Source: Spisula solida
Lineage: Eukaryota; Mollusca; Bivalvia; Venerida; Mactridae
NCBI GenBank assembly: GCA_947247005.1
Contig: OX365944.1
Location: 26,883,501-26,947,500 of the forward strand
Reading direction: 5' to 3'
Length of the DNA stretch: 64,000 nucleotides
Below, one piece after another: positions 5,518-52,476 of this stretch; the stretch's first letter is position 1, and each line of letters starts with the position of its first letter. The notes beneath the pieces are model-generated. The model worked only from the letters and a program-made list of their open reading frames with translations. It made no database searches and had not been told where the DNA came from. A program made the position numbers and the translations under genes.

Positions 5518-5800
5518 TCGGGAATTTTGCTGTCATGGGTACACATACATCCCAGACTACAGAATATTACGGGCACAAGGTCGTGCACAGGTTTTGGGCC
5601 CGCTGGTCCCGTTTAAAGAGGGCTTTGAACGTAGATTTTCCAAAACTGAAATTACTGGTCCTACCCGCCATTGCGGTACGATTCCCTGTGGAATTGCATT
5701 AACATTTAGCGCCAAAATTTTATTTTTCTATAGAAAGAACATAAGGCTAAACAAAGGGGTCCGGATCAATGCCCTAAAGGGACTCAAAAGTAGGCATACC
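5518..5800 (+). repeat. Dispersed repeat, copy 1 (copy 2 at 21980-22310, opposite strand)
   Basis: The block from gggaattttgctgtcatggg through ggtcctacccgccattgcg and gtggaattgcattaacattt recurs on the minus strand near 21980-22310 at high similarity. The protein-like frame across both copies (KTEITGPTRHC, IPCGIALTFSAK) is kept only because the copies are similar; no start, family or splice context supports a gene. Repeat class not recognised. Confidence 0.7.
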
Positions 5801-9670: not shown

Positions 9671-9692
9671 GTGAAAGGATAAGAGATAAGTG

Positions 9693-16653
<6,961 letters not shown>

Positions 16654-21979: not shown

Positions 21980-22310
21980 CTTTGTAAACGATATAGAAGA
22001 ATTCGACAGTTGGCACGTACTTTTGGGCCCCTTCAGGGCACTGATCCTGACCCCTTTGTCTAGCCTTATATTCTTTCTGTAGAAAAAAAAACTTTTTGGC
22101 GCTAAATGTTAATGCAATTCCACAGGGAATCGTATCGCAATGGCGGGTAGGACCAGTTATTTCAGTTTTGGGAAATCTGCGTTCAAAGGACTCGTTAAAG
22201 GGGACAAGCTGGCCTAAAAACCTGTGCACGACATTGGGCCCGTAATATCCTTTAATCTGAGATGCATGTGTACCCATGACAGCAAAATTCCCGAATTTTG
22301 GCATTTAGGT
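21980..22310 (-). repeat. Dispersed repeat, copy 2 (copy 1 at 5518-5800)
   Basis: Minus-strand counterpart of the 5518-5800 block, sharing gggaattttgctgtcatggg and the ctacccgccattgcgatac stretch. It sits inside the TTAA-flanked element, so it may be part of it or an insertion. The 138-codon frame over it is not supported as a gene. Confidence 0.65.
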
Positions 22311-24661: not shown

Positions 24662-25098
24662 CAACAATTAAACATAATAAAATATAAACATTTTTTGACG
24701 GGTGGAATTTTTGTAATAAGTCGAAACGTCAGATAATTTTGAAAACACCAAAATGCCAGGCACGACGTTTTTCCCACTTTGTTAGCACGATATTAGATTA
24801 AGTGTAAATATATTAACGTGACTCGATTCGCAATTACATAATGCGTCGAATGATACCAACTAATTACCTGTCGTGTAATTATGAAGCCCTGTGTGTGCTA
24901 TTACTTGCTTCATGTGCCTTCCACGGAACGACGTCAAAACGCGTTTTCCATGGTAACTTCACGACGTCAAAGTAACGTCATTGGAACGCACACGGAGATA
25001 TAAGACGCGACATTGAATTGGGAATAAATCAAAGTTTACTATGATACCAAACTTGTATATGGGTTAGAAACTTTTTTTATAGTGTGGTTCCACCTTAA

Positions 25099-25871: not shown

Positions 25872-28800
25872 CTATATGTAAAACAAGAAGCTGAATATTC
25901 CGGACAACGCGATGACTATATACATTGGAACAATCAATGTGCTACCACAGGTAACATCACCACCAAACTTGCGGAAGTATGCGTGACTCTGTGATCCACA
26001 TCTGGCGTAACTCGCCCCCACCATTGCTAGACCTTTAGCATGCGCAGCCATCTTAGGAGAACAACTTTCTGAAGTGGTGTATTTGATGCAAGACTTGTAA
26101 CTTGTCGTGGCACTACATAAAAATACACATGCAATACAATGTTTGAATACAATAAGGAACGGATTTGGGGTAATGAGCGACAATCGATGTTCAATGTACA
26201 TGTATCTACAAGTTTAGCGCAGTTATACTTGTTATAGCTGTAAGCAATTATAATGATGTAGTTTTACATACTTGTAATAACCCACGCTACTCGTATGAAG
26301 ACATGTACTAATTTTTATTTAGAACTGTCTCAATGATGAAAAGGCAGCGGTTGTTCACATTCCAAAATGAATCGTTATTTACAAAGGTTGGCTATAAACA
26401 AATGATAGCCCATTCTAACCAGTCAACGATTGAAAGAATTAATGATAGATCTACTACAAGTTTTAACTATTCCTAAAATCGTTTCAAGGGCATATCAGGG
26501 GCAAAAAATGTTTTAAAATAGAATAGCATAGAGGTTATTGCAAGGCAATATTGCCCATGAACATATAATGCATACATACAATGTACAGATATTAACGTAG
26601 TAATGCATACATAAGATAAAATAAACTTCCGGTCAAGTGCACATCATGGATTATGATAATTAATCAGAAAAATGTTATACAAAGTGTTTTTCAATATCAA
26701 CATAAAAAGCAGACATCGTAAAGAAGTAAAGTCGTTTTCTTACATAAATTATAATGAAGAAATTTGGAGAACAGTGTTTAGTTGTCAATATAATCAAAAG
26801 AGCTGTATAAACATTTAAATCATAATAATTCATATGCAGTATTGATTATGTAAAAAATAAATTTATTCAGCATTTTAATGTAGATTGCAGAGTCAAAGAT
26901 TTCTCAGAGACCTGTTGAACTAATGCGCGGTCATAACAGGAAGTAGTGTTCAATAAAGATGAGAAAAGATCATTACAAGCATTCTGTAATGACATATACT
27001 GAATTCTCAATACACGATAATAATCGAAAATAAATTTAGAAAACACTTACAGGCAATAATCGTTGACAAATGTCGATGGGTTACCACTGCCGTCGTAAAA
27101 GGCTATAATTAGATCTACATACGTCTCAACACACGTTGTGTTGTCCACGGTGCAATGAACGAACGCTTCCATAGACTCTGATGAATATATTCCAAAGCAT
27201 AAATATTGGATATGCAAGAAAATGATACTGGTTATAAATGTATGAGATGTTCATTGAATAGGTTTGATGATTATCATCAATAAATTATATGTTTATCTGT
27301 TTAACATTAATTTTGTGATACGAATTTTACATAGAGAGAACAATAACATTCGTACGATTAATATAAATAGTTTAATAAAAAGAGGAAAACTGTCTTCTTC
27401 GAAACTACGTTTGTTAAGAGTTAGGTGAAATTTGCATCGTTATAAAATACGAGTCGAATAGCATTTGGATCTATGTCGATTCAGTGACGGTAGTTCAAAT
27501 TATTTTATATCATAGTTTATGTTTATTTGTTTCATTCTGTTAATTACGTATTTGTTACAAATATGTTTCAGGTCAGCCTCTGCATCAATTAACCATGTGT
27601 TTGAACTACCAGCATCTATATGTGATTCATATCTCTCACATGTGTTTGAACTACCAGCATCTATATGTGATTCATATCTCTCCCATGTGTTTGAACTACC
27701 AGCAGCTATATTTGAAACATCTCTCTCTCGGGTGTTTGAACTACCAACAGCTATATTTGATAAATCTCTCTCCCGGGTGTTTGAACTACCGACAGGTATA
27801 TATGATAATTCTCTCCCGGGTGTTTGAACTACCAACAGCTATATTTGATACATCCCTCTCCCGGGTGTTTGAACTACCAACAGCTATATTTGATACATCT
27901 CTCTCCCGGGTGTTTGAACTACCAGCAGCTATATTTGATAATTCTCTCCCGGGTGTTTGAACTACCAGCAGCTATATTTGATACATCTCTCTCCCGGGTG
28001 TTTGAACTACCAGCAGCTATATTTGATACATCTCTCCCCCGGGTGTTTGAACTACCAGCAGCTAAATGTGATAAATCTCTCTTACATGTGTTTGAACTAC
28101 CAGCAACTATATGTGATACACCTCTCTGCCATGTGTTTGAACTACCAGCAGCTATATGTGATACATCACTCTTACATGTGTTTGAACTACCAGCAGCTAT
28201 ATTTGATAATTCTCTCCCGGGTGTTTGAACTACCAGCAGCTATATTTGATACATCACTCTCCCGGGTGTTTGAACTACCAACAGCTATATTTGATACATC
28301 TCTCTCCCGGGTGTTTGAACTACCAGCAGCTATAATTATATGATACATATCTCTCACATGTGTTTGAACTACCAGCAGCTATATGTGATACATCTCTCTC
28401 CCGGGTGTTTGAACTACCAGCAGCTATATTTGAAACATCACTCTCCGGGGTGTTTGAACTACCAACAGCTATATTTGATACATCTCTCCCCCGGGTGTTT
28501 GAACTACCAGCAGCTATATTTGATACATCTCTCCCCCGGGTGTTTGAACTACCAGCAGCTATATTTGATACATCTCTCTCCCGGGTGTTTGAACTACCAG
28601 CAGCTACATGTGATACATCTCTCTCCCATGTGTTTGAACTACCAGCAGCTATATGTGATACATTTCTCTCACATGATTTTGAACTACCAGCAGCTATAGT
28701 TGATACACCTATCTGTCATGTGTTTGAACTACCAACAGCTATATATGATACATCTCTCTCACATGATTTTGAACTACCAGCAGCTGTAGTTGATACATCT

Positions 28801-29805
28801 CTCTGCCATGTGTTTGAACTACCAACAGCTATATATGATACATCTCTCTGCCATGTGTTTGAACTACCAACATCTACATTTAATACATCTCTCTGTCATG
28901 TGTTTGAACTACCAACAGCTGTATATGATACATCTCTCTGTCATGTGTTTGAACTACCAACAGCTGTATATGAAACATCTCTCACCCATGTGTTTGAACT
29001 ACCAGCAGCTATATGTGATACATCTCTCCCCCGGATGCAGCCGGATAGTCGGTTTATACGAAGTAAGCAAATACGTACCAGTAAATGATTTACAGTAAGC
29101 CCGACTCATCACCTTGAACACTGTCGGCTCAAAGATAAATGCTTCATCCATCGAATAACAATCACGCACGGCTTCAGTGTAACATTGGATATTGCATTCA
29201 ACACTAAAAAATAAAGTTGAAATCTTATGAACTGTCAGTATGTATCACAATTAGCAAGTTCTTTTTGCCACCTCGGTCACAAAAAGCTGGTTTCACTTAT
29301 TATTGTTTTACCTATATGCACAAGTGATAAAGTACGGAGAATTTGGCATGGTCCTGACCTTTATGCATGAGTATCTAACAAGGTTGTTGCAGTGGATGTT
29401 TAACATCCTGCAAGCAAATCATGGAATATCAGTTCTTTGGATTTGTGTTTGTACATGTATAACACTTTGAGTGTCTTCATGCATCAGGGGTTATACATTT
29501 AGACAATATATCATCTGTTAAAGTTTGCTAATAAAAGGTCGAGGCTGGTGTCAAATTATCTGTATAGTGGATTGCATCGCCGTAGCCAATGCCAGGAATC
29601 CGGTAAATCGAGCACTGACATGTCGCACAAACGGAGCTTTTCGAATATCAATGTGGTCATTGGTGTTTTAACTACAATTACGATATCGTACTTACTCATC
29701 ACAGAACGTTGATATAGCGCTCGATGGTGATAACATAGCCATCTCATCATAGCTCACATAAACACATGCTGATAGTCGAGATAAAATAGATTGTAATGAG
29801 CATGA
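25872..29805 (-). CDS. Exons 15-18: diverged Cys domain 5 and hydrophobic C-terminus
   Basis: Exons 29696-29805 (SCSLQSILSRLSACVYVS..TFCD), 29079-29203 (VECNIQCYTEAVRDCYSMDE), 27051-27177 (SMEAFVHCTVDNTTCVETY) and 25872-26112 (ATTSYKSCIKYTTSESCSPK..DVTCGS). Each aligns with one quarter of the repeated domain by Cys spacing and exon border, but the residues have diverged widely, so this looks like the oldest unit. The protein ends with TLIVPMYIVIALSGIFSFLF plus two residues, with no basic residues after it. That is typical of a GPI-attachment signal (candidate omega site in CGS) and less like a stop-transfer helix. Confidence 0.78.
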
Positions 29806-32800
29806 CTGAAAGTAAACAATAACTATACTGTAAGTAACACTCCAAATACAGGATCGTATAGTAACGTTCACAATGAGTACAACAAGCAGTAGTTTATGTT
29901 TATAAAATCTGCAGCATCAGTTTGATGAATGTACAGGAGGTAGCAATACATACGATGACTATTACAATACGTACTTACCGGGACAGTAGAACTCTGAATT
30001 AATTCTGTCGTAGTTTGACTGGATGACGTCGATTGTGACGATTCCGGTGTTTGGAAGAAGGTAGACGATTGCGGTGTTTGGGAGGAAGTAGACGATTCCA
30101 GTGTTTCGGAGGAAGTAGACGATTCCGGTGTTTGGGAGGAAGTAGACGATTCCGGTGTTTGGGAGGAAGTAGACGATTCCAGTGTTTCGGAGGAAGTAGA
30201 CGATTCCGGTGTTTGGGAGGAAGTAGACGATTCCAGTGTTTCGGAGGAAGTAGACGATTCCGGTGTTTGGGAGGAAGTAGACGATTCCGGTGTTTGGGAG
30301 GAAGTAGACGATTCCGGTGTTTGTAGGGAAGTAGACGATTCCAGTGTTTGTGCGGAAGTAGACGATTCCAGTGTTTGTGTGGAAGTAGACGATTCCAGTG
30401 TTTGTGTGGAAGTAGACGATTCCAGTGTTTGTGTGGACGAAGACGATTCCGGTGTTTGTGTGAAAGTAGACGAAACCGATGTTTTTGTGGAAGTAGACGA
30501 TATTGGTGTTTGTGTGGAATCAGACGATATCGGTGTTTGTGTGTAAGTAGACGAACTCGGTGTTTGTGTGGAATTAGACAAAACCGGTGTTTGGGAGGAA
30601 GTAGGCGAAACCGGTGTTTGTGTGGAAGTAGACGATATCGGTGTTTGGTTGGTGACAGTTTGAGAAGATGTTTCTATCGTACAAGTTGGTAATGATGGAT
30701 TATTATAATATATATCATACAATACGTTGTCCTGTAAAACGTCACATTGTTGGTAAGAATATATTGCAGTGAAATAGTTTGTAAAGAAGTCAAACATTTC
30801 GTTGGTACAGTTGGACCCATCCGTCATATTAACAACATCAATACAACTCAGCATAGCATCGTTATTTCTGAAAAGGAGTGAGTAATGATGTTAAGCAGAT
30901 CTGAAAGTGTCAATGCAATCAATTATACAATACATCGTGTTATGACAGATACTATGTTTACGGATTGTATTCGGTTGAATGAAAGGTAAATAACAGTACA
31001 GAATAGAGAAGTATTATGAACACCTTACGATCTGGATCGAAGAGGATAAGGTAAGGTAAGGTCTTCGTTGGAACTTGTTGTGAACATAAGTGTACACTTT
31101 GGTGCAAACATGTCGGGTATAATAAAATTATAATCGACACAATAAGGGATACATTGTTATAACCTGAGGTGGTATCAAATATTGATCTTAGTTAATTGGA
31201 GTATAAAGATAGCCAATCATATCGCCTGTTACTGACCAAGATTTGATATGGCGTGATCTGATTGGTTATATTTAATCTTAAGTCACGTAAGATCAATATT
31301 GAGTATCACCCCCAGAACGCAAGAATAAATAAAACTCATAATTATACAATTTCTTCATCTTAGCGAACAAATATCAAACAACACGTCCTTTAAATATAGC
31401 AAGATTTTCACAACTTAAGGTTGTTAACAGTATTCAAACGGTTTGATGTGTGAAAAGCAACGTTTGTGATTTTACTCTACCATTTTATATTCAAGACAGT
31501 CGGTGTGTGACATTACGTTGAACTAATAAACAAGAAGGGAACTTACTGACAAAATAAATCTTTGAAGTTGTCGAATTCAGAGTCGTTGTAGTACGTCCAT
31601 GCTTCTTGTATCATTGGTAGGTTTTGCATCATACAGGTTGTATTGAATGACAAACATTCTGACAAACCATTAACTGAAATATCAAGTATTATCATAGCAA
31701 TAAAAGAAGGCATAACTTTTTATGAAGCAGGAAAATATGACAAAGAGGATCTTTTCCCGGCCGGGTGATCATTTGTATAGAATTCGTAAAACGACAGCAC
31801 TAACAAATAATACCAAAAATTGTATATGTTAGTATTGCTGACTAAAACGATTACAGGAGCAGTCATCAAACGAGAAGCCATCTCGTACTTCACTTGTATA
31901 ACGTTTTGAAGCTATTGTTATTGTATGCCAGATGTACTGGGACATTTATTTGTGACACATGGTACTAAATGATCAAACTAACATGACGTTACTATAATGC
32001 AGATAATTAAAATGAAGGAGAATTAATGCAAATGTTTATATGAGCTGTCGATTATTTAAGAATTATTGATCATAAAAACAGATTGTGAGAAGAGCCACCT
32101 TTAGTGTTTTATATCAACTGATGTTATTTGCAAGGAGAAACTGGATAAATGATTTATGCCACAGGGTAATTTATCAAACAACAGTATTGATGAAACTAAT
32201 ATCATATAAATGAACTCTCTATAAAGCACCTACTGTATAATTCAATGTTGTCACACAATGCTCGCGTGGTCGTTATCGTTAAGGGTATATCGTACGACAG
32301 GAATTCAGCCTCACCCAAATAACATTCCCCTACAGCATCCTGTATACATTTCAAATAACATTCAGATCTAAAATGTAAAATTGAAGCAGCATTCTGTAAT
32401 GATCGTTAGCTTCAAAACAACATAAAGTCTTTAAGTATAAAAGCAAACTAAGCATTATAATGTTTTGTTATCTAATAAGCATACCATTGACATAAACTAC
32501 CTGTATACACTAGATGTAGTATAAATGTGTATAATAAAATATTTTATTTAAATTCCGAACTATATTTGTAACAACATAACGCTACGATGTCACTTTATTT
32601 TAGGTTATCCAGTGCGATTCATGTTGATAATATTTAACTCAATAAAGACGTAAGTGTGAGAATAGAAATGCTGGCTAATCCTGATCTGATATATGTTGGA
32701 TAGCATAGACCCACACATATGCGACTTAAGTATTCGCGATTATATGTACCACATTTCGTTATATTTAAATCCATGTATGACAATTTAGTCCGATCAAACA

Positions 32801-35800
32801 TATTGGGTTAAAGTTATCAACAACATGCCAAATCATTATAGAAACTTGTTGATGCTTTATGCAAAGGTTGAATACCTTGTACATGTATATTCGACAACGT
32901 TGTAGACCATGTATTATTTAGAGATTTTAATAACTGGCCGCGCTGTGGCATTAGATGATAATATCCCCGGCACGACGATAATGGCTCGAGGGCGCTAGCC
33001 CGAGTGTCATTATCAAGCACCGGGGATATTATCATCCAATGCCACAGACAGCGCGCCCAGTTATTGAACTGTTTACTATACATGTTCCAGCGAAGGAAAT
33101 AATTATATAAAAGCACTCAATGTCAACATCTTACATAACAGTATAGAATAAAGGTTACACGTCTTCATTCGTCAATGGATACGAACGAACCTTCGGAACA
33201 ACGAGAAATAGCACGGTGCAATTCTCATTCCGAGGCAAAATAGAACTAAACGAAGAAAATGGTCAATTAAATATTATGTCTTTTTAGTAAAATAAAGAAG
33301 TTTGGATGTCCCGTTTTCCTTAATTTATTAGGCCTAGCCTCCAAGCGTAGTTTTCGACGTCTATGTACAATAGGAGCCGTACATTTAATGTAAATTCCGC
33401 GTAAAAAACGTCACGTCGCGCGTGCGCACGATCGCAGGGCGATTATTGATCACGTGATCGATAATATCCCCGGGGATATTATCAGTCCGGGGATATTATC
33501 AGTTTTCAACATTTTGATGATAATATCCCCGGTGGGGCGATAATACAGAGTTTGTCAACGTAAAAATGTTACTATAAATAGTAACAGGTGTATTAATTGA
33601 AAATAAAAATACTGGTCAAGTTTAAAAGTTCAAAAGTATCTGGTTGTGGTTGTGATTACTTACGTCATACAAGCTTCATAGAGACTCGTAAGGTTGCCAG
33701 AAGACACGGGTAAGTGTTGTTGGTAACAAGCGTTAACAGCTGCCATGACATTTGTACAACTGCCGGCGCTTTGTGTAGTTTCTGCAGTGGTTTGTGAAGT
33801 CAGACTTGTATCTGCTGAACTGTAAGGCGAAGATTCTTTCGTTGGTGGGGTATCGCTTGTTGCAGTTGAACTGTACGATGGCGATTCTTGCGTTTGTGCG
33901 GAAGTTGACGATCCCGGTGTTTGTGTGGAAGTAGACGATTCTGGTGTTTGTGCGGAAGTAGACGATTCCGGTGTTTGGGAGGAAGTAGACGATTCTGGTG
34001 TTTGTGCGGAAGTAGACGATTCTGGTGTTTGTACGGAAGTAGGCGATTCCGGTGTTTGAAAGGAAGTAGACGATTCCAGTGTTTGTGTGGAAGTAGACGG
34101 TACCAGTGTTTGTGTGGACGAAGACGATTCCGGTGTTTGTGTGAAAGTAGACGAAACCGATGTTTTTGTGGAAGTAGACGATATTGGTGTTTGTGTGGAA
34201 TCAGACGATATCGGTGTTTGTGTGTAAGTAGACGAACTCGGTGTTTGTGTGGATTTAGACAAAACCGGTGTTTGGGAGGAAGTAGACGAAACCGGTGTTT
34301 GTGTGGAAGTAGACGATATCGGTGTTTGGTTGGTGACAGTTTGAGAAGATGTTTCTATCGTACAAGTCGGTAATGATGGATTATTATAATATATATCATA
34401 CAATACGTTGTCCTGTAAAACGTCACATTGTTGGTAAGAATATATTGCAGTGAAATAGTTTGTAAAGAAGTCAAACATTTCGTTGGTACAGTTGGACCCA
34501 TCCGTCATATTAACAACATCAATACAACTCAGCATAGCATCGTTATTTCTGAAAAGGAGTGAGTAATGATGTTAAGCAGATCTGAAAGTGTCAATGCAAT
34601 CAATTATACAATACATCGTGTTATGACAGATACTATGTTTACGGATTGTATTCGGTTGAATGAAAGGTAAATAACAGTACAGAATAGAGAAGTATTATGA
34701 ACACCTTACGATCTGGATCGAAGAGGATAAGGTAAGGTAAGGTCTTCGTTGGAACTTGTTGTAAACATAAGTGTACACTTTGGTGCAAACATGTCGGGTA
34801 TAATAAAATTATAATCGACACAATAAGGGATACATTGTTATAACCTGAGGTGGTATCAAATATTGATCTTAGTTAATTGGAGTATAAAGATAGCCAATCA
34901 TATCGCCTGTTACTGACCAAGATTTGATATGGCGTGATCTGATTGGTTATATTTAATCTTAAGTCACGTAAGATCAATATTGAGTATCACCCCCAGAACG
35001 CAAGAATAAATAAAACTCATAATTATACAATTTCTTCGTTTTCTTAGCGAACAAATATCAAACAACACGTCTTTTAAATATAGCAAGATTTTCACAACTT
35101 AAGGTTGTTAACAGTATTCAAACGGTTTGATGTGTGAAAAGCAACGTTTGTGATTTTACTCTACCATTTTATATTCAAGACAGTCGGTGTGTGACATTAC
35201 GTTGAACTAATAAACAAGAAGGGAACTTACTGACAAAATAAATCTTTGAAGTTGTCGAATTCAGAGTCGTTGTAGTACGTCCATGCTTCTTGTATCATTG
35301 GTAGGTTTTGCATCATACAGGTTGTATTGAATGACAAACATTCTGACAAACCATTAACTGAAATATCAAGTATTATCATAGCAATAAAAGAAGGCATAAC
35401 TTTTTATGAAGCAGGAAAATATGACAAAGAGGATCTTTTCCCGGCCGGGTGATCATTTGTATAGAATTCGTAAAACGACAGCACTAACAAATAATACCAA
35501 AAATTGTATATGTTAGTATTGCTGACTAAAACGATTACAGGAGCAGTCATCAAACGAGAAGCCATCTCGTACTTCACTTGTATAACGTTTTGAAGCTATT
35601 GTTATTGTATGCCAGATGTACTGGGACATTTATTTGTGACACATGGTACTAAATGATCAAACTAACATGACGTTACTATAATGCAGATAATTAAAATGAA
35701 GGAGAATTAATGCAAATGTTTATATGAGCTGTCGATTATTTAAGAATTATTGATCATAAAAACAGATTGTGAGAAGAGCCACCTTTAGTGTTTTATATCA

Positions 35801-38800
35801 ACTGATGTTATTTGCAAGGAGAAACTGGATACATTATTTATGCCACAGTGTAATTTATCAAACAACAGTATTGATGAAACATATATCATATAAATGAACT
35901 CTCTATAAAGCACCTACTGTATAATTCAATGTTGTCACACAATGCTCGCGTGGTCGTTATCGTTAAGGGTATATCGTACGACAGGAATTCAGCCTCACCC
36001 AAATAACATTCCCCTACAGCATCCTGTATACATTTCAAATAACATTCAGATCTAAAATGTAAAATTGAAGCAGCATTCTGTAATGATCGTTAGCTTCAAA
36101 ACAACATAAAGTCTTTAAGTATAAAAGTAAAACTAAGCATTATAATGTTTTGTTATCTAATAAGCATACCATTGACATAAACTACCTGTATACACTAGAT
36201 GTAGTATAAATGTGTATAATAAAATATTTTATTTAAATTCCGAACTATATTTGTAACAACATAACGCTACGATGTCACTTTATTTTAGGTTATCCAGTGC
36301 GATTCATGTTGATAATATTTAACTCAATAAAGACGTAAGTGTGAGAATAGAAATGCTGGCTAATCCTGATCTGATATATGTTGGATAGCATAGACCCACA
36401 CATATGCGACTTAAGTATTCGCGATTATATGTACCACATTTCGTTATATTTAAATCCATGTATGACAATTTAGTCCGATCAAACATATTGGGTTAAAGTT
36501 ATCAACAACATGCCAAATCATTATAGAAACTTGTTGATGCTTTATGCAAAGGTTGAACACCTTGTACATGTATATTCGACAACGTTGTAGACCATGTATT
36601 ATTTAGAGATTTTAATAACTGGCCGCGCTGTGGCATTAGATGATAATATCCCCGGCACGACGATAATGGCTCGAGGGCGCTAGCCCGAGTGCCATTATCA
36701 AGCACCGGGGATATTATCATCCAATGCCACAGACAGCGCGCCCAGTTATTGAACTGTTTACTATACATGTTCCAGCGAAGGAAATAATTATATAAAAGCA
36801 CTCAATGTCAACATCTTACATAACAGTATAGAATAAAGGTTACACGTCTTCATTCGTCAATGGATACGAACGAACCTTCGGAACAACGAGAAATAGCACG
36901 GTGCAATTCTCATTCCGAGGCAAAATAGAACTAAACGAAGAAAATGATCAATTAAATATTATGTCTTTTTAGTAAAATAAAGAAGTTTGGATGTCCCGTT
37001 TTCCTTAATTTATTAGGCCTAGCCTCAAAGCGTAGTTTTCGACGTCTATGTACAATAGGAGCCGTACATTTAACGTAAATTCCGCGTAAAAAACGTCACG
37101 TCGCGCGTGCGCACGATCGCAGGGCGATTATTGATCACGTGATCGATAATATCCCCGGGGATATTATCAGTTTTCAACATTTTGATGATAATATCCTCGG
37201 TGGGGCGATAATACAGAGTTTGTCAACGTAAAAATGTTACTATAAATAGTAACAGGTGTATTAATTGAAAATAAAAATACTGGTCAAGTTTAAAAGTTCA
37301 AAAGTATCTGGTTGTGGTTGTGATTACTTACGTCATACAAGCTTCATAGAGACTCGTAAGGTTGCCAGAAGACACGGGTAAGTGTTGTTGGTAACAAGCG
37401 TTAACAGCTGCCATGACATTTGTACAACTGCCGGCGCTTTGTGTAGTTTCTGCAGTGGTTTGTGAAGTCAGACTTGTATCTGCTGAACTGTAAGGCGAAG
37501 ATTCTTTCGTTGGTGGGGTATCGCTTGTTGCAGTTGAACTGTACGATGGCGATTCTTGCGTTTGTGCGGAAGTTGACGATCCCGGTGTTTGTGTGGAAGT
37601 AGACGATTCTGGTGTTTGTGCGGAAGTAGACGATTCCGGTGTTTGGGAGGAAGTAGACGATTCTGGTGTTTGTGCGGAAGTAGACGATTCTGGTGTTTGT
37701 ACGGAAGTAGGCGATTCCGGTGTTTGAAAGGAAGTAGACGATTCCAGTGTTTGTGTGGAAGTAGACGGTACCAGTGTTTGTGTGGAAGTAGACGATTTCA
37801 GTGTTTGTGTGGACGAAGACGATTCCGGTGTTTGTGTGAAAGTAGACGAAACCGATGTTTTTGTGGAAGTAGACGATATTGGTGTTTGTGTGGAATCAGA
37901 CGATATCGGTGTTTGTGTGTAAGTAGACGAACTCGGTGTTTGTGTGGAATTAGACAAAACCGGTGTTTGGGAGGAAGTAGACGAAACAGGTGTTTGTGTG
38001 GAAGTAGACGATATCGGTGTTTGGTTGGTGACAGTTTGAGAAGATGTTTCTATCGTACAAGTTGGTAATGATGGATTATTATAATATATATCAAACAATA
38101 CGTTGTCCTGTAAAACGTCACATTGTTGGTAAGAATATATTGCAGTGAAATAGTTTGTAAAGAAGTCAAACATTTCGTTGGTACAGTTGGACCCATCCGT
38201 CATATTAACAACATCAATACAACTCATCATAGCATCGTTATTTCTGAAAAGGAGTGAGTAATGATGTTAAGCAGATCTGAAAGTGTCAATGCAATCAATT
38301 ATACAATACATCGTGTTATGACAGATACTATGTTTACGGATTGTATTCGGTTGAATGAAAGGTAAATAGCAGTACAGAATAGAGAAGTATTATGAACACC
38401 TTACGATCTGGATCGAAGAGGATAAGGTAAGGTAAGGTCTTCGTTGGAACTTGTTGTGAACATAAGTGTACACTTTGGTGCAAACATGTCGGGTATAATA
38501 AAATTATAATCGACACAATAAGGGATACATTGTTATAACCTGAGGTGGTATCAAATATTGATCTTAGTTAATTGGAGTATAAAGATAGCCAATCATATCG
38601 CCTGTTACTGACCAAGATTTGATATGGCGTGATCTGATTGGTTATATTTAATCTTAAGTCACGTAAGATCAATATTGAGTATCACCCCCAGAACCCAAGA
38701 ATAAATAAAACTCATAATTATACTATTTCTTCGTTTTCTTAGCGAACAAAAATCAAACAACACGTCTTTTAAATATAGCAAGATTTTCACAACTTAAGGT

Positions 38801-41800
38801 TGTTAACAGTATTCAAACGGTTTGATGTGTGAAAAGCAACGTTTGTGATTTTACTCTACCATTTTATATTCAAGACAGTCGGTGCGTGACATTACGTTGA
38901 ACTAATAAACAAGAAGGGAACTTACTGACAAAATGAATCTTTGAAGTTGTCGAATTCAGAGTCGTTGAAGTACGTCCATGCTTCTTGTATCATTGGTTGG
39001 TTTTGCACCATACAGGTTGTATTGAATGACAAACATTCTGACAAACCATTAACTGAAATATCAAGTATTATCATAGCAATAAAAGAAGGCATAACTTTTT
39101 ATGAAGCAGGCAAATATGACAAAGAGGATCTTTTCCCGGCCGGGTGATCATTTGTATAGAATTCGTAAAACGACAACAAATAATACCAAAAATTGTATAT
39201 GTAAGTATTGCTGACTAAAACGATTACAGGAGCAGTCATCAAACGAGAAGCCATCTCGTACTTCACTTGTATAACGTTTTTAAGCTATTGTTATTGTATG
39301 CCAGATGTACTGGGACATTTATTTGTGACACATGGTACTAAATGATCAAACTAACATGACGTTACTATAATGCAGATAATTAAAATGAAGGAGAATTAAT
39401 GCAAATGTTTATATGAGCTGTCGATTATTTAAGAATTATTGATCATAAAAACAGATTGTGAGAAGAGCCACCTTTAGTGTTTTATATCAACTGATGTTAT
39501 TTGCAAGGAGAAACTGGATACATTATTTATGCCACAGGGTAATTTATCAAACAACAGTATTGATGAAACATATATCATATAAATGAACTCTCTATGAAGC
39601 ACCTACTGTATAATTCAATGTTGTCACACAATGCTCGCGTGGTCGTTATCGTTAAGGGTATATCGTACGACAGGAATTCAGCCTCACCCAAATAACATTC
39701 CCCTACAGCATCCTGTATACATTTCAAATAACATTCAGATCTAAAATGTAAAATTGAAGCAGCATTCTGTAATGATCGTTAGCTTCAAAACAACATAAAG
39801 TCTTTAAGTATAAAAGTAAAACTAAGCATTATAATGTTTTGTTATCTAATAAGCATATCATTGACATAAAATACCTGTATACACTAGATATAGTATAAAT
39901 GTGTATAATAAAAGATTTTATTTAAATTCCGAAATATATTTGTAACAACATAACGCTACGATGTCACTTTATTTTAGGTTATCCAGTGCGATTCGTGTTG
40001 AAAATATTTAACTCAATAAAGACGTATGTGTGAGATTAGTAATACTGGCTAATCCTGATCTGATATGTGTTGGATAGCATAGACCAACACATATGCGACT
40101 TTTGTAGTATCCGCGATTATAGGTACCACAATTTGTTATATTTAAATCCATATATGACAATTTAGTCTGATCGAACATATTGGGTTAAAGTTATCAACAA
40201 CTTGCCACATCATTATAGAAACTTGCTGATGCTTTATGCAAAGGTTAAACACCTTATACAGGTATATACGACAACGTTGTAGACCATGTATTATTTGAAA
40301 ATAAAGATACTGGTCAAGTTTAAAAGTTCAAAAGTATATAGTGATGTGGTTTTGATTACTTACGTCATACAAGCTTCATAGAGACTCGTAAGGTTGTCAG
40401 AAGACACGAGTAAGTGTTGTTGGTAACAAGCGTTAACAGCTGCCATGACATTTGTACAACTGCCGGCGCTTTGTGTAGTTTCTGCAGTGGTTTGTAAAGT
40501 CAGACTTGTATCTGTTGAACTGTAGGGCGGAAACTCTTGAGTTAGTGGGGTAACGCTTGTAGCAGTTGAACTGTAGGGTGGAGACTCTTGTGTTGGTGGA
40601 GTAACGCTTGTATCTGTTGAACTATACGATGTCGATTCTTGCGTTTGTGTGGAAGTAGACAATTCCAGTGTTTGTGTGGACGAGGACGATTCTGGTGTAA
40701 GTGTGAAAGTAGACGGTTCCGGTGTTTTTGTGGAAGTAGACAATTCCAATGTTTGGGAGGAAGTAGACGATTCCAATGTTTGTGAGGAAGTAGACAATAT
40801 CGGTGTTTGTGAGGAAGTAGACGATATCGATGTTTGATTGCTGACAGTTTGAGAAGATGTTTCTATCGTACAAGTTGGTAATGATGGATTATTATAATAT
40901 ATATCAAACAATACGTTGTCCTGTAAAACGTCACATTGTTGGTAAGAATATATTGCAGTGTAGAAGTTTGTAAAGAAGTCGAACATTTCGTTGGTACAGT
41001 TGGACCCATCCATCATATTGACAACATCAATACAACTCATCATAGCATCGTTATATCTGAAAAGGAGTGAATAATGATGTTCAGCAGATCTGAAAGTGTC
41101 AATGCAATCAAAATATATACAATACATCGTGTTATGAAAGATACTATGTTTATGGATTGTATTCGGTTGATGAAAGGTAAAGAAAAGGGCTGAATGGAGA
41201 AGTATTGTTACGACCATACGATCCGATCCGGATCGAAGAGGATAAGGTAAGGTAAGGTCTTCGGTGAAACTTGTTGTGAACACATTTGTACACTTTGGTG
41301 CAAACATGTCGGGTATTATAAACGTATAATCGACACAATAAGGGATACATTGTTATAACCTGAGGTGGTATCCAGGTATCCAATATTGATCTTAGTTAAA
41401 TGGAGTACAAAAATATATAAAGATAGTCAATCATATTGCATGCTACGGACCAAGAGTTGATATGGTGTGATCTGATTGGTTGTAAGAATAAATAAACTCA
41501 TAAGTATACAACTTCTTCGTTTTCTTTCGCGTACAAATATCAAACAACATGTATTTTAAGTGCTACTGCATGCAATAGAGTCATACGGCAAGATTTCCAC
41601 TACTTAAGGTTGTTAATAGTATTCAAACGGTATGATGTGTTGAAGCAACGTTTGTGCATTTAATTCAATCATATTATAGTCAAGATAGTTGGTCGGTGTT
41701 GATCTAGAAGGGAACTTACTGACAAAATAAATATGTGAAGTTGCCGAAGTCAGAGTCGTTGTAGTACGCCCAGGCTTCTTGTAGCATTGGAAGGTTTGGC

Positions 41801-44800
41801 ATCATACAAGTTGTATTAAATGGCAAACATTCTGACAAACCATTTACTGAAATTTCAATTATTATCATAGCAATAAAAGAAGGCATAACCTTTTATGAAG
41901 CAGGCAAATATGATAAAGAGGATCTTTTCCCGGCCGGGTGATCATTTGTATAGAATTCGTAAAACGACAGCACTAACAAATAATACCAAAAATTGTATAT
42001 GTAAGTATTGCTGACTAAAACGATTACAGGAGCAGTCATCAAACGAGAAGCCATCTCGTACTTCGTATTTCCCGGCCAAAATGATCATTTGTTTAGAATT
42101 CGTAAAGCGACAGCACAAATAAAATAAGAAACACCAAAAGGTAGTCATTTAAGTACTAGTATTGCTTATTAAAAAAATTACAGGAGCAGCAATTAATTAT
42201 ACTTCACTTGTATGACGGTGTAGATACTCGACGTATATGGGGCATTTATTTGTGACACATGATACTAAATGATCAAACCAACATGCCATAAATATAATGC
42301 AGGCAAATAGAACGAAGGAGAACTATAGCGGACGTTAATTTGTCTAGAATTTGGGAAAGATAGTTTATTTGTGAAACGATGCTAATACGAAATTTGAAAT
42401 GTTGATTATTTAAGAATTATTGATCATAAATACAGATTGTAAGAAGAGCTACCTTTAATTTTATATAGGTATAAAACCTTGTGGCAACTAATGGTATTTG
42501 AAAGCACAATCTGGAAAAATCATTTATGCCACATGGTAATTTATCAAACAACATTATTGATGAAACTAACATTACATAAATGAACTCTCTATATAATACC
42601 TACTGTATAATTCAATGTTGTCACACAATGCTCGTGTGGTCGTTATCGTTAAAGGTATATCGTACGTCAGGAATTCAGTCTCATCCAAATAACATTCCCC
42701 TACAGCATCTTGTATACATTTCAAATAACATTCAGATCTAAAATGTAAAATTGAAGCAGCATTCTGTAATGATCGTTAGTTTCAAAACAACATAAAGTCG
42801 TTTATGATAAAAGTAATACTTATCCTTGTAATGTTCTGTAATTGACTATATACATAATAACACACTAAACGTAGAAAGAATGTGACATTTTACACAGACT
42901 ATAGTGATAATCACATTATTGAATTTCGAACTTTGTTCTAACTTCTCGGAGCTTAAATATTCTACTTTTAATTTAACAATGCGTTCTTGAGTGTGTATAT
43001 AAGACATTTTCTAACTACATGTAGGTTCATGGTTCAAACCTCTCTAAAATTAGTATCTGACACATAATTTTATCCCGTAGATCTCACTTATAAATTAGGA
43101 TGGCATATATATATATACATATATAGTGTATATATATATATATAAGCTATACCATAGTATCAGCTGTTTTTATGAGCGATAAGGGATATATTTGCGTTCC
43201 GTCCCGTATAAATTGCGGTACGGACACGCCACTGTCATGTTTGGAAAGGGGGACAACTGTTGATCCGTCCTGGTACGGACACACAGTTCTTTATACCTTC
43301 CTAACTGGTTCCCACAGAATTGCGCAGTTAAATGAGTCATCCAGTTGTTTGTTAAATTTTAGATTGTATTTTGGACATTACACTTGACGAATGTTCTAAG
43401 TACACACTTTTAGAACTCGAATAAATCTGAAACATAATCATCTCAACTCAATAAAACTGTTTAGATAGCATATGTTGGTGACTGTCTTTGATACAGTAGA
43501 AGAAAACCCAAGATCTACGTGACAATCATTGATGCGTGACGAAAATGACAAAATAATATTTTTCTCGTGCTCACACCTCAAATATGTGTAAATGTGTTTA
43601 AATCATTTCATACACGATTAACATTCGACCCCCAAACATAAAGCCATAAAAAATAGTTCGCATCATTTAACGCAAATGACGATTAGGGAGTGCGCAAGTG
43701 CAATATGAATGCTTGAAATTGGCATGCCAATAAGACTGGTAAGATTGAATTCATTAATTGGCTGTTTTGGGGTTCTTAACACATGCACAAACTTTTTATT
43801 ATGGTTGTTGCATTGAATTCTCGAAAAAGCTGCATGTTTCTATTGACTCGATTTAAAAATGAGACGTCACATGGCGTCATTTACATTTAGTCCTTAAATT
43901 CGTCAAAACACGTTTATGACAACATCTGGCTGATGGTTGTATCACTTAAAGATTGTGAAATAATGAGGAATCGTTGAATTCAACAGAATAAGTCCATTTA
44001 TTTGTATGGAGCAATTTGAAGTTGAGCATGGAAGTAACTTAAATAGGCATTTGTCATCCGAATTACTACTACAATTTAACAATAACTCACTATTTTTCGA
44101 TCAATCATGTATTTTGTAAGATATGAGCACATTTTCATCACATGGGGTTTGATTTTGATGTAATTTCCTTTTTAGGTTGCACGAATGAATGCCCGCCTTG
44201 TAGCCCGGACCAAAATCCGATATAATAAGTCTGGGATAAGTTGGGGCGACGCATCCGAGCACGACGGCAACACCAGAACGTACAGGAACTCACAACGAAC
44301 ATTTTACTAGAACGGAATGCACTCCAGCAGCAATTGGTACACATCATTATCAATTTAATGCCTCAGAAGATGTCAGGCTATCATCAGGGCAGACGGTGGT
44401 CATACATAATATTGATGTGCGACTTTGTTGTTTTAAGCAGTGAACTAAATGGTCATTTTCTAGTATGTTGTTATTATATTTCAGAATGGTGATTAACTCA
44501 ACTTGATAGACAATAGTTTCCTGATTCCAATGGTATATTCGATTCACTGATAGGTCTAATACTTTTCCTGTTAAATGAAAATTACAAAGTGTGTACTTAG
44601 AACATTCGACTAGTGTATAACGTTTTTATGGTATAGCTTATGTTGAATGACCCAACATGAATGACCGGTTTAATTTTTTAAAATTAACATATATCATTAT
44701 ACCAATAAATGACAAAACACATGATCAAAACTTTATAACATGTACATATGAAACAATCACAGCTAAAATGTGGGGTGTCCGAAGGAAAATTGGGTAAGCT

Positions 44801-50800: not shown

Positions 50801-52476
50801 AGTACTCCGATTCAGAAAAACGAGGAGATAGTTGATTAAAACAGTAGTAGCCTTTCTCTAAATGTGAACATTTACAATTTGGATGTATATTTAAAAATTT
50901 AAAACATCATTCTAAAACTTGATACCATTTGACCAGTTTATGTAAAGAATTAATCAAATGCAGTATTTATAAAGAACTTGTTACAACGACGTCGAATAAC
51001 GATTGAATGGCGTTTGCGACGTCACGCAAAAAGGGTCTGAATAGGGCCTCAACAAAACAGCTGTAACTTTCTTAGAAATCAAGATACTTACAAAATTTCT
51101 TTTGCATTTTGCTTTATTAAAATTACTCTTTTAAATAATAAAAAATCTCAAAATCTAATTTTTTGTCAAAATAGCAGGTTTTTCTGGAGACTGGCTCATA
51201 TATAAACTTACAGATGTGGATTTTGTAGTTTATCTATTATTTGAAAAAAAATACATGTCTAGTTTGGAAAGACCACAAGTATACCTGTGAGAATGACTTA
51301 CGTCATACAAGCTTCATCGAGACTTGTAAAGTTACCAGAAGACACGGGTAAGTATTGTTGGTAACAATATTCAATATCTGCCGTAACATTTGTACAGCTG
51401 CCAGCACTTTGAGTAGTTTCTGAAGTGGTTTGTGCATGTACAGAATAAACTGTAACAGCAAATAGGACGACTGCAAAATAAAAGTTTCAAAGACATAAGA
51501 AGCCGACCTGAAGTACGAGCAGAGCTGAACATTCGAGGGGTGTATGATAAGTGCGTGGACTGTACTCGTGGTAAATAAAAACAATGTTATGAAATTTAAA
51601 AATTACAAGTACAACACAATGGCATTAACATACAAAAAAAACAGATACAAATACATAACACCGCTTGCGAATAGTGATCGCATATGCTAGATACATGTGC
51701 ATATACCGGAACACGACGTTATATTACGTCGATATTGCATGACATTTTAACATGCGAAGATCACTTTTGAAATAGTCACTTGCCAGAAGTACTGACTTTT
51801 CATGTCGTTTGATTTACTTGGTTAATATTGCAACATACCATTCTTACCGAAATGTGGACACGATTTTCTGCATTTGTATCTTATGTTCACAAAACGAGTA
51901 GAAACTATTATTATTATGAGCACAAATGGGCAACAATTCCTTGTTTGATAGTTGTGTTGCGGAGTCTAAGATTTACTAAGATTTATGACATTATTACGAA
52001 AATCCATGTTGACAATTGACTTTTATTATTTCGGAAGTACATGTATATAGAGTTTCCTGTATAATTTGACTTTTACTTAACATAGCACGCTCTAAATTTA
52101 GGAGAACCGTGTAAAGACATCATTTGGGACGGGTGCACATTTCTACAGTTATGCTGCTATGACGAACATCAAAATGTTTCTTATAGTTCCTACGTGTAAA
52201 ATTATGAAGTGCTCCGGTTGACGTTTCCATGGCTACATCTGAGGGTCAGTGATGGCTCATTATTTTACCAATTTAAAATAATTTGTTCTTAATCCATTGC
52301 ATACCTTTAGTGACAATATTAATGTAACTTCAAATTGATCGTATACAAATGGAAAGAATAATAGAAAATTCAACAGGAAATATTTCAATATTCAAAAAGA
52401 GAACATCTGAAGCAGTTAATTAGAATTTACCTGTGGCAAGATTCATCCGTGAGCTTTGAAACATCACCAACATCAT
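25872..52476 (-). CDS. Giant modular secreted/GPI-anchored mucin-like protein, 18 coding exons
   Basis: Exons, 5' to 3' on the minus strand: 52476-52431, 51470-51302, 42737-42604, 41846-41720, 41056-40364, 39740-39607, 39052-38926, 38243-37332, 36051-35918, 35357-35231, 34548-33664, 32367-32234, 31673-31547, 30867-29979, 29805-29696, 29203-29079, 27177-27051, 26112-25872. All have AG/GT borders and matching phases. They sum to 5241 nt, a 1746-residue protein: signal peptide about 1-28, five Cys-rich domains (about 38-222, 356-540, 747-931, 1129-1313, 1547-1723), Ser/Thr-rich linkers between them, and a hydrophobic C-terminal tail. The chosen ATG (52476) directly follows an in-frame TAA and has A at -3; the in-frame ATG at 52446 is an alternative giving 1736 residues. 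No known domain family recognised. Likely a glycosylated surface or mucus protein (inference). Separate genes per module are unlikely, because only the first exon pair carries a start and signal peptide. Confidence 0.8.
27594..29035. repeat. 45-bp minisatellite, about 32 copies, in intron 16 of the mucin-like gene
   Basis: Units of the form gtgtttgaactaccagcagc, tatatttgatacatc, tctctcccgg. A few 43-bp units shift the frame, so overlapping frames on the plus strand (VFELPAAIFDTSLSR-type, longest 28360-29088) are interrupted and not conserved as protein. The array ends about 45 bp from the donor of exon 16. Confidence 0.95.
29338..29562 (+). repeat. Dispersed repeat, copy 2 (copy 1 at 15645-15880)
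   Basis: Same order of anchors as the copy at 15645-15880, with roughly three quarters of bases matching by eye. It lies in intron 15 of the mucin-like gene, antisense to it. Confidence 0.55.
29979..32367 (-). CDS. Cassette 4 (exons 12-14): Cys domain 4 completion and expanded linker 4
   Basis: Exons 32234-32367, 31547-31673 and 29979-30867 (134, 127 and 889 nt). The 5' part of the third exon matches cassettes 2 and 3, but its linker has expanded to about 230 residues by homogeneous SQTPESSTS and SETLESSTS units, and it ends TELIQSSTVP at a phase-0 donor (CCG|GTAAGT). It does not run on into the GSCTN..ACMT segment. That segment is supplied by a separate exon, 29696-29805. Confidence 0.8.
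32912..33598. mobile_element. About 0.68-kb palindrome-rich insertion in intron 11 of the mucin-like gene
   Basis: Compared with the homologous intron of cassette 1 (about 40290-40300), which reads gtattattt directly into gaaaataaa, this copy has about 0.68 kb inserted, edged by tattattt and tattaatt. It contains a near-perfect 130-bp palindrome (about 32932-33068) and further gataatatccccgg motifs at 33450-33540, next to a CpG-rich patch (33405-33435). The 99-codon frame on the minus strand is not supported. Confidence 0.7.
33664..36051 (-). CDS. Cassette 3 (exons 9-11): Cys domain 3 completion, linker 3, start of domain 4
   Basis: Exons 35918-36051, 35231-35357 and 33664-34548 (134, 127 and 885 nt; 1146 nt total, in frame). 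The linker is the cassette 2 linker minus one 27-bp unit (TLKSSTSTQ). Splice sites are identical to those of cassette 2. The flanking introns match cassette 2 nearly base for base, showing very recent duplication or gene conversion. Confidence 0.82.
36605..37268. mobile_element. Second copy of the palindrome-rich insertion (intron 8)
   Basis: Nearly identical to 32912-33598, sharing the same borders, but with one fewer gataatatccccgg-type unit near 37155. It was duplicated along with its cassette. Confidence 0.7.
37332..39740 (-). CDS. Cassette 2 (exons 6-8): Cys domain 2 completion, linker 2, start of domain 3
   Basis: Exons 39607-39740, 38926-39052 and 37332-38243 (134, 127 and 912 nt; 1173 nt total, in frame). 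Linker of about 205 residues with 9-residue repeats of SSTSTQTPE type. It ends GSCTNVMAAVNACYQQHLPV..ACMT. Exons and introns are almost identical to cassettes 3 and 4, differing by scattered single bases and one extra 27-bp linker unit relative to cassette 3. Confidence 0.82.
40364..42737 (-). CDS. Cassette 1 (exons 3-5): Cys domain 1 completion, linker 1, start of domain 2
   Basis: Exons 42604-42737 (134 nt), 41720-41846 (127 nt) and 40364-41056 (693 nt). The first reads ECYLKCIQDAV..ECYLGE, the second LSECLPFNTTCMMPNLP..FTYLFCQ, and the third starts YNDAMMSCIDVVNMMDG..NCTNE. The linker is the shortest of the four (about 130 residues) and differs from the rest in carrying TPPTQESPPYSST-type units. 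It lacks the roughly 0.7-kb intron insertion present downstream of the later cassettes, and is the most diverged of the four cassettes. Cassette length is 954 nt, phase 2 to phase 2. Confidence 0.8.
41935..42180. repeat. Local duplication, about 125 bp, in intron 3
   Basis: Two diverged copies of cccggcc..tgatcatttgt, tagaattcgtaaa(a/g)cgacag and attacaggagcag lie head to tail. The other cassettes have a single copy. Confidence 0.6.
43100..43146. repeat. (TA)n-rich simple repeat
   Basis: About 45 bp of alternating ta with minor interruptions, adjoining the left end of the next inverted-repeat element. Confidence 0.9.
43148..45100. mobile_element. Inverted-repeat DNA transposon remnant with Tc1/mariner-like transposase fragment
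   Basis: Arms 43148-43384 and 44866-45100 are complementary over about 235 bp (landmarks agcgataagggatat, ccgtcccgtataaattgcgg, ggttcccacagaattgcgca). The 1.5-kb interior holds a degenerate transposase C-terminus on the plus strand. It sits in intron 2 of the mucin-like gene. Confidence 0.75.
44190..44420 (+). pseudogene. Tc1/mariner (DDE_3-type) transposase C-terminal fragment
   Basis: Translation gives CSPDQNPI, two stops, VWDKLGRRIRARRQHQNVQELTTN... then NALQQQLVHIIINLMPQKM. This follows the C-terminal block of the DDE_3/Tc1 family (SPDLNPIEHVWD.LGRR..., ...W..IPQ..I..LI.SM..R), with stops where the conserved Glu-His would be. The residues before it are frameshifted. Clearly a dead transposase, within the 43148-45100 inverted repeats. 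Confidence 0.7.
45213..48792. mobile_element. 3.6-kb long-inverted-repeat element with repeated GAGGCCC motifs
   Basis: Ends ttagtccggcag (45213-45224) and ctgccggactaa (48781-48792) are inverted. Complementarity continues through tgatgccaccttgtcatcat and ggaaatgaggcccc inward for roughly 750 bp on each side (about 45213-45990 and 48060-48792). Each arm contains several aatgaggccc(c/t) blocks spaced about 150-200 bp apart. The 2-kb centre has no recognised transposase, so it is non-autonomous; superfamily unresolved. Confidence 0.7.
47220..47480 (+). repeat. GC-richer patch, possible dispersed repeat
   Basis: About 260 bp noticeably richer in GC than its surroundings, running from ccggggacattaaagaacca to ctttgtaaagcgcctttaaa, wording reminiscent of widespread invertebrate repeats. 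Both strands are open (about 100 codons) but neither frame looks like a known protein. Confidence 0.35.
48890..48984 (+). other. Exon-like open segment antisense within intron 2
   Basis: A 95-nt stretch lies between a good acceptor (tttgtacag) and a consensus donor (GTAAGT). One frame is open: SIHEYIYDVDTLQREITQYA then ERSRILAKSKS. No neighbouring exon could be joined to it by eye. It may be a remnant of a transposon gene or of a nested host gene on the plus strand. Confidence 0.3.
49948..50067. repeat. Hairpin-forming inverted repeat, about 120 bp
   Basis: The arm beginning aaataaaaatctgttcg and ending ttattgtcggtgaata pairs with tattcaccgacaatata...cagagtttttattt over about 36 bp with a few mismatches. 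MITE-like, in intron 2 of the mucin-like gene. Confidence 0.7.
50068..51301. other. Intron 2 remainder, no feature seen
   Basis: AT-rich intron sequence of the mucin-like gene. Duplicated aaggccgcaggttatattgg blocks occur just upstream at 49125-49170, but nothing is assigned here. Confidence 0.5.
51302..52476 (-). CDS. Exons 1-2: signal peptide and first quarter of Cys domain 1
   Basis: Exon 1 (52431-52476) ends ACA G|GTAAAT; exon 2 (51302-51470) follows tattttgcag. Together they read MNLATVVLFAVTVYSVHA then QTTSETTQSAGSC, a clear signal peptide with AxA-type end (VHA|Q), running into a segment with three Cys (SC..YC..AC) ending EACMT in phase 2. The same segment ends every cassette, which identifies this as the 5' end of the array. 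The next exon is 8.6 kb away because intron 2 has been filled by transposons. Confidence 0.8.

What the first reader, a model, noticed from the sequence alone, without database searches (positions are those of the whole stretch)
25872..52476. One previously unannotated-looking giant gene: signal peptide, five Cys domains, four mucin linkers, GPI-like tail
Seen directly: 18 minus-strand exons with AG/GT borders join in matching phases, and their summed length (5241 nt) is an exact multiple of three. Only the first pair has a start and signal peptide, and only the last has a stop and hydrophobic tail. Each Cys domain is spread over four exon segments with conserved Cys spacing. I do not recognise the domain as any named family; the alternating Cys-domain/mucin-repeat plan resembles secreted gel-forming or surface-coat proteins in general design only. 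In a bivalve, a role in mucus, gill or haemocyte surface, or shell matrix is possible (inference).
Basis: partly seen in the sequence, partly recalled or inferred. Interest (0 to 1): 0.85.

Follow-up and report, generated by a model that had tools for sequence, protein, structure and literature searches.

The report
Tethered mucin-like gene, five repeated Cys-domains
One long animal gene appears to encode a surface glycoprotein that alternates five copies of an unnamed cysteine-rich domain with sugar-bearing mucin repeats, and it seems to have grown recently by copying a block of three exons inside itself.

Summary
On the minus strand, 52476 to 25872, 18 exons with 17 of 17 GT-AG introns join into 5241 nt, one 1746-residue open frame: a signal-peptide-like start, five 14-cysteine domains, four Ser/Thr/Pro-rich linkers of 130-231 residues and a hydrophobic tail. 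The fifth domain is 24% identical to the third but clearly homologous (z 10.8), and its three internal introns share phases with the others. D1 against D2-D4 shows purifying selection (pN/pS 0.36-0.45). Introns of cassettes 2-4 are 98.5-99.6% identical, those of cassette 1 about 87-91%, so the gene grew by repeated in-frame duplication of a three-exon cassette. No named family or relative was found, but the collections searched cover animals poorly. Most likely it is a membrane-tethered mucin-like coat protein: architecture well supported, function inferred. GPI versus transmembrane end is unresolved; exon 1 is tentative. Assembly error in cassette number is possible, and no transcript data were available.

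The parts
52431..52476 (-). exon 1: start codon(s), N-terminal part of signal peptide; tentative
   Evidence: 4 of 11 candidate ATG/donor combinations use this donor
51302..51470 (-). exon 2: rest of signal peptide, D1 unit 1
42604..42737 (-). exon 3: D1 unit 2 (cassette 1)
41720..41846 (-). exon 4: D1 unit 3 (cassette 1)
40364..41056 (-). exon 5: D1 unit 4, mucin linker 1 (130 aa), D2 unit 1
39607..39740 (-). exon 6: D2 unit 2 (cassette 2)
38926..39052 (-). exon 7: D2 unit 3 (cassette 2)
37332..38243 (-). exon 8: D2 unit 4, mucin linker 2 (203 aa), D3 unit 1
35918..36051 (-). exon 9: D3 unit 2 (cassette 3)
35231..35357 (-). exon 10: D3 unit 3 (cassette 3)
33664..34548 (-). exon 11: D3 unit 4, mucin linker 3 (194 aa), D4 unit 1
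32234..32367 (-). exon 12: D4 unit 2 (cassette 4)
31547..31673 (-). exon 13: D4 unit 3 (cassette 4)
29979..30867 (-). exon 14: D4 unit 4 and mucin linker 4 (231 aa, 27-bp repeat array)
29696..29805 (-). exon 15: D5 unit 1
29079..29203 (-). exon 16: D5 unit 2
27051..27177 (-). exon 17: D5 unit 3
25872..26112 (-). exon 18: D5 unit 4, hydrophobic C-terminal tail (about residues 1726-1746), stop
36596..37257 (-). transposon-like insert in intron 8, absent from intron 5 (ends placed by eye and by the offset to intron 11)
32911..33589 (-). the same insert in intron 11 (ends read by eye); its flanks look like a short target-site duplication (AATAATAC-like)

Best explanation
This is one protein-coding animal gene for a membrane-tethered, mucin-like surface glycoprotein. 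Shown in the sequence: the exon chain, five homologous 14-Cys domains, four Ser/Thr/Pro-rich repeat linkers, one signal-like start and one hydrophobic end, selection on D1 against D2-D4, and growth by copying a three-exon phase 2-2 cassette. Inferred: the linkers are O-glycosylated and stretched, the Cys domains fold as compact, mainly helical, disulfide-stabilised knobs spaced along the chain, and the tail anchors the chain at the cell surface. The whole would act as a protective or adhesive coat in which knobs contact each other or outside ligands, and whose length can change by duplication or loss of cassettes and by repeat-number change in the 27-bp arrays.
For:: 18 exons, 17 of 17 GT-AG, 5241 nt, 1746 aa, single frame; 14 Cys per domain, linkers 64-69% S+T+P. 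D3-D5 local score 103 against shuffle mean 35 (z 10.8, 0 of 500 shuffles as high); the only 19-residue windows with hydropathy above 1.5 lie at the C-terminal tail (first residues 1718-1728), while the start peaks at 2.67 over 11 residues; the three introns inside D5 have the phases (2, 1, 2) of those inside D1-D4, two of three at the same distance from the preceding Cys; pN/pS of D1 against D2, D3, D4 is 0.45, 0.36, 0.38 (Fisher p 0.012, 0.0007, 0.002); exons diverged less than introns, 30 of 456 against 194 of 1786 sites for cassettes 1-2 (p 0.0065); introns of cassettes 2-4 at least 98.5% identical; exon-piece models contain only helices, at low confidence.
Against: No transcript, protein or expression data. 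No relative outside this gene was found, so no independent conservation. Structure models are low confidence (mean pLDDT 59 and 38). Exons 4, 7, 10, 13 taken alone differ between cassette 1 and the others as much as introns do (86.6-89.8% identity). D2 against D3 and D4 shows 8 nonsynonymous and 1 or 0 synonymous differences (p 0.36 for D2-D4), too few to judge. No AATAAA in the 1.17 kb after the stop (an ATTAAA lies at 25276), no CCAAT and only a distant TATAAA (53490) in the 1 kb before exon 1. The tail lacks the usual polar spacer of GPI signals. Exon 1 is not unique.
Confidence: 0.6

Rival explanations
1. The gene is real, but the number of cassettes is exaggerated: two haplotypes or alleles with different repeat numbers were joined in tandem by the assembler.
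For: Introns of cassettes 2-4 differ by only about 0.4-1.5%, in the range of heterozygosity that I recall for bivalves; repeat-rich linkers are hard to assemble.
Against: The linkers after cassettes 2, 3 and 4 differ in length (203, 194, 231 aa), and linker 4 is only about 86% identical to linkers 2 and 3 when aligned; intron 8 lacks 17 bases that intron 11 has; the junctions stay in phase; cassette 1 (87-91% in introns) and D5 (24% protein identity) are too different to be allelic.
Confidence: 0.15
2. A secreted, gel-forming or shell/mantle matrix protein whose tail is cleaved off or is not an anchor; the strongly acidic domains bind calcium or cross-link a gel.
For: D1-D4 have 24-26 acidic and 2-3 basic residues each, computed pI 4.05; Cys domains alternate with Ser/Thr repeats as in gel-forming mucins (PMC6861317, passages).
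Against: A hydrophobic C-terminal segment with no residues after it suggests an anchor; no Pfam hit to VWD, mucin WxxW, C8 or chitin-binding families in the pieces scanned.
Confidence: 0.2
3. Several tandem genes rather than one.
For: Near-identical repeated cassettes about 3.7 kb apart.
Against: No second signal-peptide or tail coding piece above chance; exons 5, 8 and 11 encode parts of two successive domains in one open exon.
Confidence: 0.04
4. Chance open frames or a decayed pseudogene.
For: No expression data; no relative found.
Against: No stop or frameshift in 18 joined exons; other frames carry stops in 9 of 10 exons tested; purifying selection on D1 against D2-D4; D5 keeps Cys spacing and intron phases at 24% identity.
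Confidence: 0.01

Closest known systems
Gel-forming mucins with CYS domains (MUC2, MUC5AC, MUC5B; Oikosin1 of Oikopleura is named in PMC6861317)
   Same: Folded Cys-rich domains alternate with O-glycosylated Ser/Thr-rich regions or occur in several copies per chain; proposed role in self-association (passages).
   Different: CYS domains are about 110 residues with 10% Cys; here 181 residues with 14 Cys (7.7%), strongly acidic, no WxxW (that motif is recalled), no Pfam match, no VWD hit in the pieces scanned, hydrophobic C-terminal tail.
Membrane-tethered mucins (general class, recalled)
   Same: Signal peptide, long Ser/Thr/Pro tandem repeats, one hydrophobic anchor.
   Different: No SEA or EGF domain hit in the pieces scanned; no residues after the hydrophobic segment; Cys domains repeated between the mucin tracts.
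Nematode DUF19-like and GDNF-receptor-like Cys-rich helical domains (recalled leads only)
   Same: Cys-rich, probably helical, extracellular; some GPI-anchored (recalled).
   Different: No Pfam match to either at E up to 10; no profile or fold comparison was possible.

Membership tests
Mucin-like glycoprotein (architecture) | Long Ser/Thr/Pro-rich tandem repeats in the coding region | tested here: met
   Four linkers of 130-231 aa, 64-69% S+T+P; 27-bp unit arrays
Mucin-like glycoprotein (architecture) | Dense O-glycosylation | not testable with these tools
   Needs protein
Gel-forming mucin | VWD/C8 domains for polymerisation and CYS (WxxW) domains (features recalled) | tested here: not met
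   No such Pfam hits in D1, D2, D3 (D4 has the same protein sequence), D5 and exons 8, 14, 18; no WxxW in the whole 1746 aa. The linkers of exons 5 and 11 and the N-terminus were not scanned
Membrane-tethered surface protein | Signal peptide | tested here: inconclusive
   Hydrophobic stretch (2.67 over 11 residues from residue 13) with a fitting cleavage site by eye; the first exon is not unique; no predictor available
Membrane-tethered surface protein | Hydrophobic C-terminal anchor | tested here: met
   Highest 19-residue hydropathy window 2.37 at residues 1726-1744 of 1746; that it acts as an anchor is inferred
GPI-anchored protein | Small omega site, polar spacer, hydrophobic tail | tested here: inconclusive
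   Small residues G-S-T after the last Cys and a hydrophobic tail, but no polar spacer; no predictor available
DUF19 or GDNF receptor domain (Pfam families, recalled) | Match to the curated profile | tested here: not met
   Neither is among the rows at E up to 10 for D1, D2, D3, D5; HMMER's filters drop most matches above about 0.1, so remote kinship is not excluded
Four-fold exon-unit repeat inside the 14-Cys domain | Units more alike than shuffled units | tested here: not met
   28 unit pairs tested: the 24 different-position pairs lie at z -1.1 to 2.3; of the 4 same-position pairs of D3 and D5 only unit 2 is strong (z 7.7; others 0.8, 2.4, 1.2)

The most novel reading that the evidence does not exclude
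The 14-Cys domain is an undescribed extracellular, mainly helical fold, used as a contact module in a tethered mucin whose number of domains and linker lengths vary between individuals through unequal exchange of a phase-symmetric exon cassette, making a fast-changing barrier or recognition coat.
Probability: 0.25. Interest if true: 0.6.

Novelty: new variant of a known kind. Interest (0 to 1): 0.42.

Why it matters
If right, it gives a clean case of a domain-plus-mucin gene growing in steps: an old duplication (D5), an intermediate one (cassette 1) and very recent ones (cassettes 2-4) that carried along a transposon-like intron insert. It also points to a Cys domain with no match in the Pfam copy searched. 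Variation in cassette number between individuals would be directly testable and would bear on how invertebrate surface coats diversify.

Tried and rejected
Internal four-fold repeat of the domain: each exon looks like Ca-x(6-11)-Cb-x(18-27)-Cc in D1-D4, but shuffles do not support homology between units, so it stays an impression. Extra degenerate cassettes in the 8.6 kb intron 2 or elsewhere in the window: none convincing (best hit outside the named exons E 0.051).

Family searches gave only weak rows: Pfam (D5 with tail: NIF phosphatase 0.2 and TMCO5 0.32, both below their curated cut-offs; a coronavirus NSP15 middle-domain model 0.071, NIF 0.14, TMCO5 0.26, each for one of 4 members; Mug62 0.041, below its cut-off), NCBIfam (dullard-like phosphatase 0.022 and TIGR00743 0.023, each for one of 4 members), PDB sequences (best 0.23; best 0.66). 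NIF in Pfam and the dullard-like model in NCBIfam are, as I recall, related phosphatase families. I read the pair of rows as chance, since they are weak, touch one member only and do not suit a Cys-rich secreted domain, but did not test this further.

Protein search over 5.8 billion sequences: 0 of 12 candidates at E up to 1 for D3 and 0 of 259 at E up to 10 for the four-domain alignment. This is weak negative evidence: the sources seem mostly microbial, and genes made of short exons would be missed. As a control, a 401-residue part of a LINE protein of the same window found 4276 relatives among the 7991 candidates scored (120 listed), so some DNA of animal type is present. IMG/VR and GTDB scans: 12 and 17 pattern stretches, none a relative. 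No Rfam family reached its gathering score in the window. Fold search was not run because the models were low confidence.

I also saw found passages, not whole texts, of PMC6861317 and PMC4877012; the latter, a Dreissena shell paper, gave nothing of use. So I do not claim that the protein is absent from print.

Full report
What is there. I rebuilt the proposed gene from the window DNA. On the minus strand, 18 exons between 52476 and 25872 join in phase. All 17 introns begin with GT and end with AG, the coding length is 5241 nt and the product is 1746 residues with one stop at the end. Of ten exons tested in three frames, nine are open only in the frame used and exon 2 is open in two; the other eight were not tested that way. 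Exon 1 is the least certain: a scan of 3 kb upstream gave 11 combinations of an ATG and a donor at 7 donors, 4 of them at this donor. Because exon 2 codes the hydrophobic core, other short first exons would serve too.

The domains. There are five domains with 14 cysteines each. D1 to D4 have identical cysteine spacing, and D3 and D4 have the same protein sequence (0 nonsynonymous differences). D5 is 24% identical to D3 in the alignment, where 13 of 14 cysteine columns coincide and the first is offset. A shuffle test supports D3-D5 homology strongly (score 103, shuffle mean 35, z 10.8, 0 of 500 as high). The three introns inside D5 have the same phases as those inside D1-D4 (2, 1, 2), and two of the three lie at the same distance from the preceding cysteine (+2 and +1 residues; the third is +5 against +7).

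Linkers and ends. The four linkers are 130, 203, 194 and 231 residues, 64-69% Ser+Thr+Pro, encoded largely by 27-bp unit arrays. Of 28 N-X-S/T sites, 22 lie in the domains and 6 in the linkers. D1-D4 are strongly acidic, 24-26 acidic against 2-3 basic residues each. The only 19-residue windows with hydropathy above 1.5 lie at the C-terminus, the highest being 2.37 at 1726-1744. The tail has no polar spacer after G-S-T, so GPI anchor and transmembrane end cannot be separated here.

How the gene grew. Exons 3-5, 6-8, 9-11 and 12-14 are four cassettes. The first three begin and end in phase 2, so copying one keeps the frame; cassette 4 ends in phase 0 because it joins D5. In its two inner introns cassette 1 is 86.6-89.5% identical to the others, and intron 5 is 91% identical to introns 8 and 11; introns of cassettes 2-4 are 98.5-99.6% identical (gaps left out). 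The exons of cassettes 2-4 are 96.9-100% identical outside the linkers. Linkers 2 and 3 are 99.6% identical apart from one 27-base unit, while linker 4 is about 86% identical to both. Homology of the end of intron 2 with the end of intron 5 starts at 42842/39845, and exon 2 matches exon 5 from 51433/40495 on, which suggests the edges of an older duplication. A transposon-like insert of about 0.66-0.68 kb sits in introns 8 and 11 but not in 5, so it probably landed before the latest copying.

Selection. D1 against D2, D3 and D4 gives pN/pS of 0.45, 0.36 and 0.38 (Fisher p 0.012, 0.0007, 0.002). These three comparisons share D1 and are not independent. Exons of cassettes 1 and 2 differ at 30 of 456 sites, introns at 194 of 1786 (p 0.0065). 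Against this, exon 4/7/10/13 taken alone is as diverged as the introns. Among D2-D4, differences are few; D2 against D3 and D4 leans nonsynonymous (8 against 1 and 0), not significant (p 0.36 for D2-D4). The gene therefore looks functional, but the recent copies are too young to judge.

One gene or several. Exons 5, 8 and 11 each carry the end of one domain, a whole linker and the start of the next domain in one open frame, and tblastn found no second signal-peptide or tail piece above chance in the window. Separate genes are very unlikely. A false tandem copy made by the assembler from two haplotypes is a live concern for cassettes 2-4 and cannot be excluded without reads.

What family. No Pfam or NCBIfam family matched convincingly (the lowest E-value was 0.022, a dullard-like phosphatase model in one of 4 members), no PDB sequence did (best 0.23), and no protein of the large collection. 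The viral and prokaryote genome scans confirmed no relative, as expected for an animal gene. These negatives say little about molluscs. Models of single-exon pieces contain only helices but are weak (mean pLDDT 59 for unit 2; 38 for exon 5). I therefore call the domain unnamed rather than new. A resemblance to nematode DUF19 or GDNF-receptor domains is recalled, and the only test I could make, a Pfam scan, did not support it.

Host. A LINE protein at 59319-62693 has relatives at up to 64% identity over the whole 401-residue region searched, and one at 72% over 77% of it. Of the 120 listed, 4 bear organism names: Sedimenticola sp. (2) and Candidatus Thiodiazotropha endolucinida (2, one cut short). 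I recall Thiodiazotropha as a lucinid clam symbiont, so these LINEs are probably host DNA in symbiont assemblies. This fits a bivalve host but does not prove it.

Function. By design it looks like a tethered mucin with folded knobs between glycosylated spacers. In gel-forming mucins, CYS domains in the same alternating position are proposed to support weak contacts between chains, and a protein made of 12 CYS domains stiffened mucus (PMC6861317, passages). By analogy only, the knobs here may make contacts within a surface coat. It fails membership in gel-forming mucins on the features tested: no VWD hit in the pieces scanned, no WxxW, and a hydrophobic end.

Verdict. Real gene, well-supported architecture, inferred function, unnamed domain, recent in-frame growth. 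Of moderate interest.

Noticed in passing
27593-29032: A 45-bp minisatellite, 32 copies, fills much of intron 16; since 45 is a multiple of 3, open frames appear on both strands (for example 28336-29088 +, 250 aa of 15-residue repeats). That frame gave Pfam rows (best NOMO Ig-like, E 4.7e-07, but no single stretch passing), which I take for a repeat artefact. Probably not coding.
   Followed up: partly
59319-62693, 53601-55116, 23549-24667 (minus): LINE-type reverse transcriptases (Pfam RVT_1), one with a 1124-aa open frame.
   Followed up: partly
43148-43380 and 44866-45098; 45247-45899 and 48112-48768: Two large inverted-repeat structures inside the 8.6 kb intron 2 (arms 97% and, in three pieces, 76-81% complementary), probably fold-back or DNA transposons.
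   Followed up: no
905-1558 and 15895-16653 (plus): Two paralogous membrane-protein pieces, 32% identical over 239 columns, hydrophobic start and Tyr/Arg-rich tail; no Pfam family above its cut-off. A further hydrophobic piece lies at 9690-10004.
   Followed up: partly
5474-5863 (plus) and 21888-22304 (minus): Two stretches in opposite orientation share a translated segment by eye, probably copies of a dispersed repeat.
   Followed up: no
14117-14276: A 4-bp CACG microsatellite, 40 copies, 98% matches.
   Followed up: no
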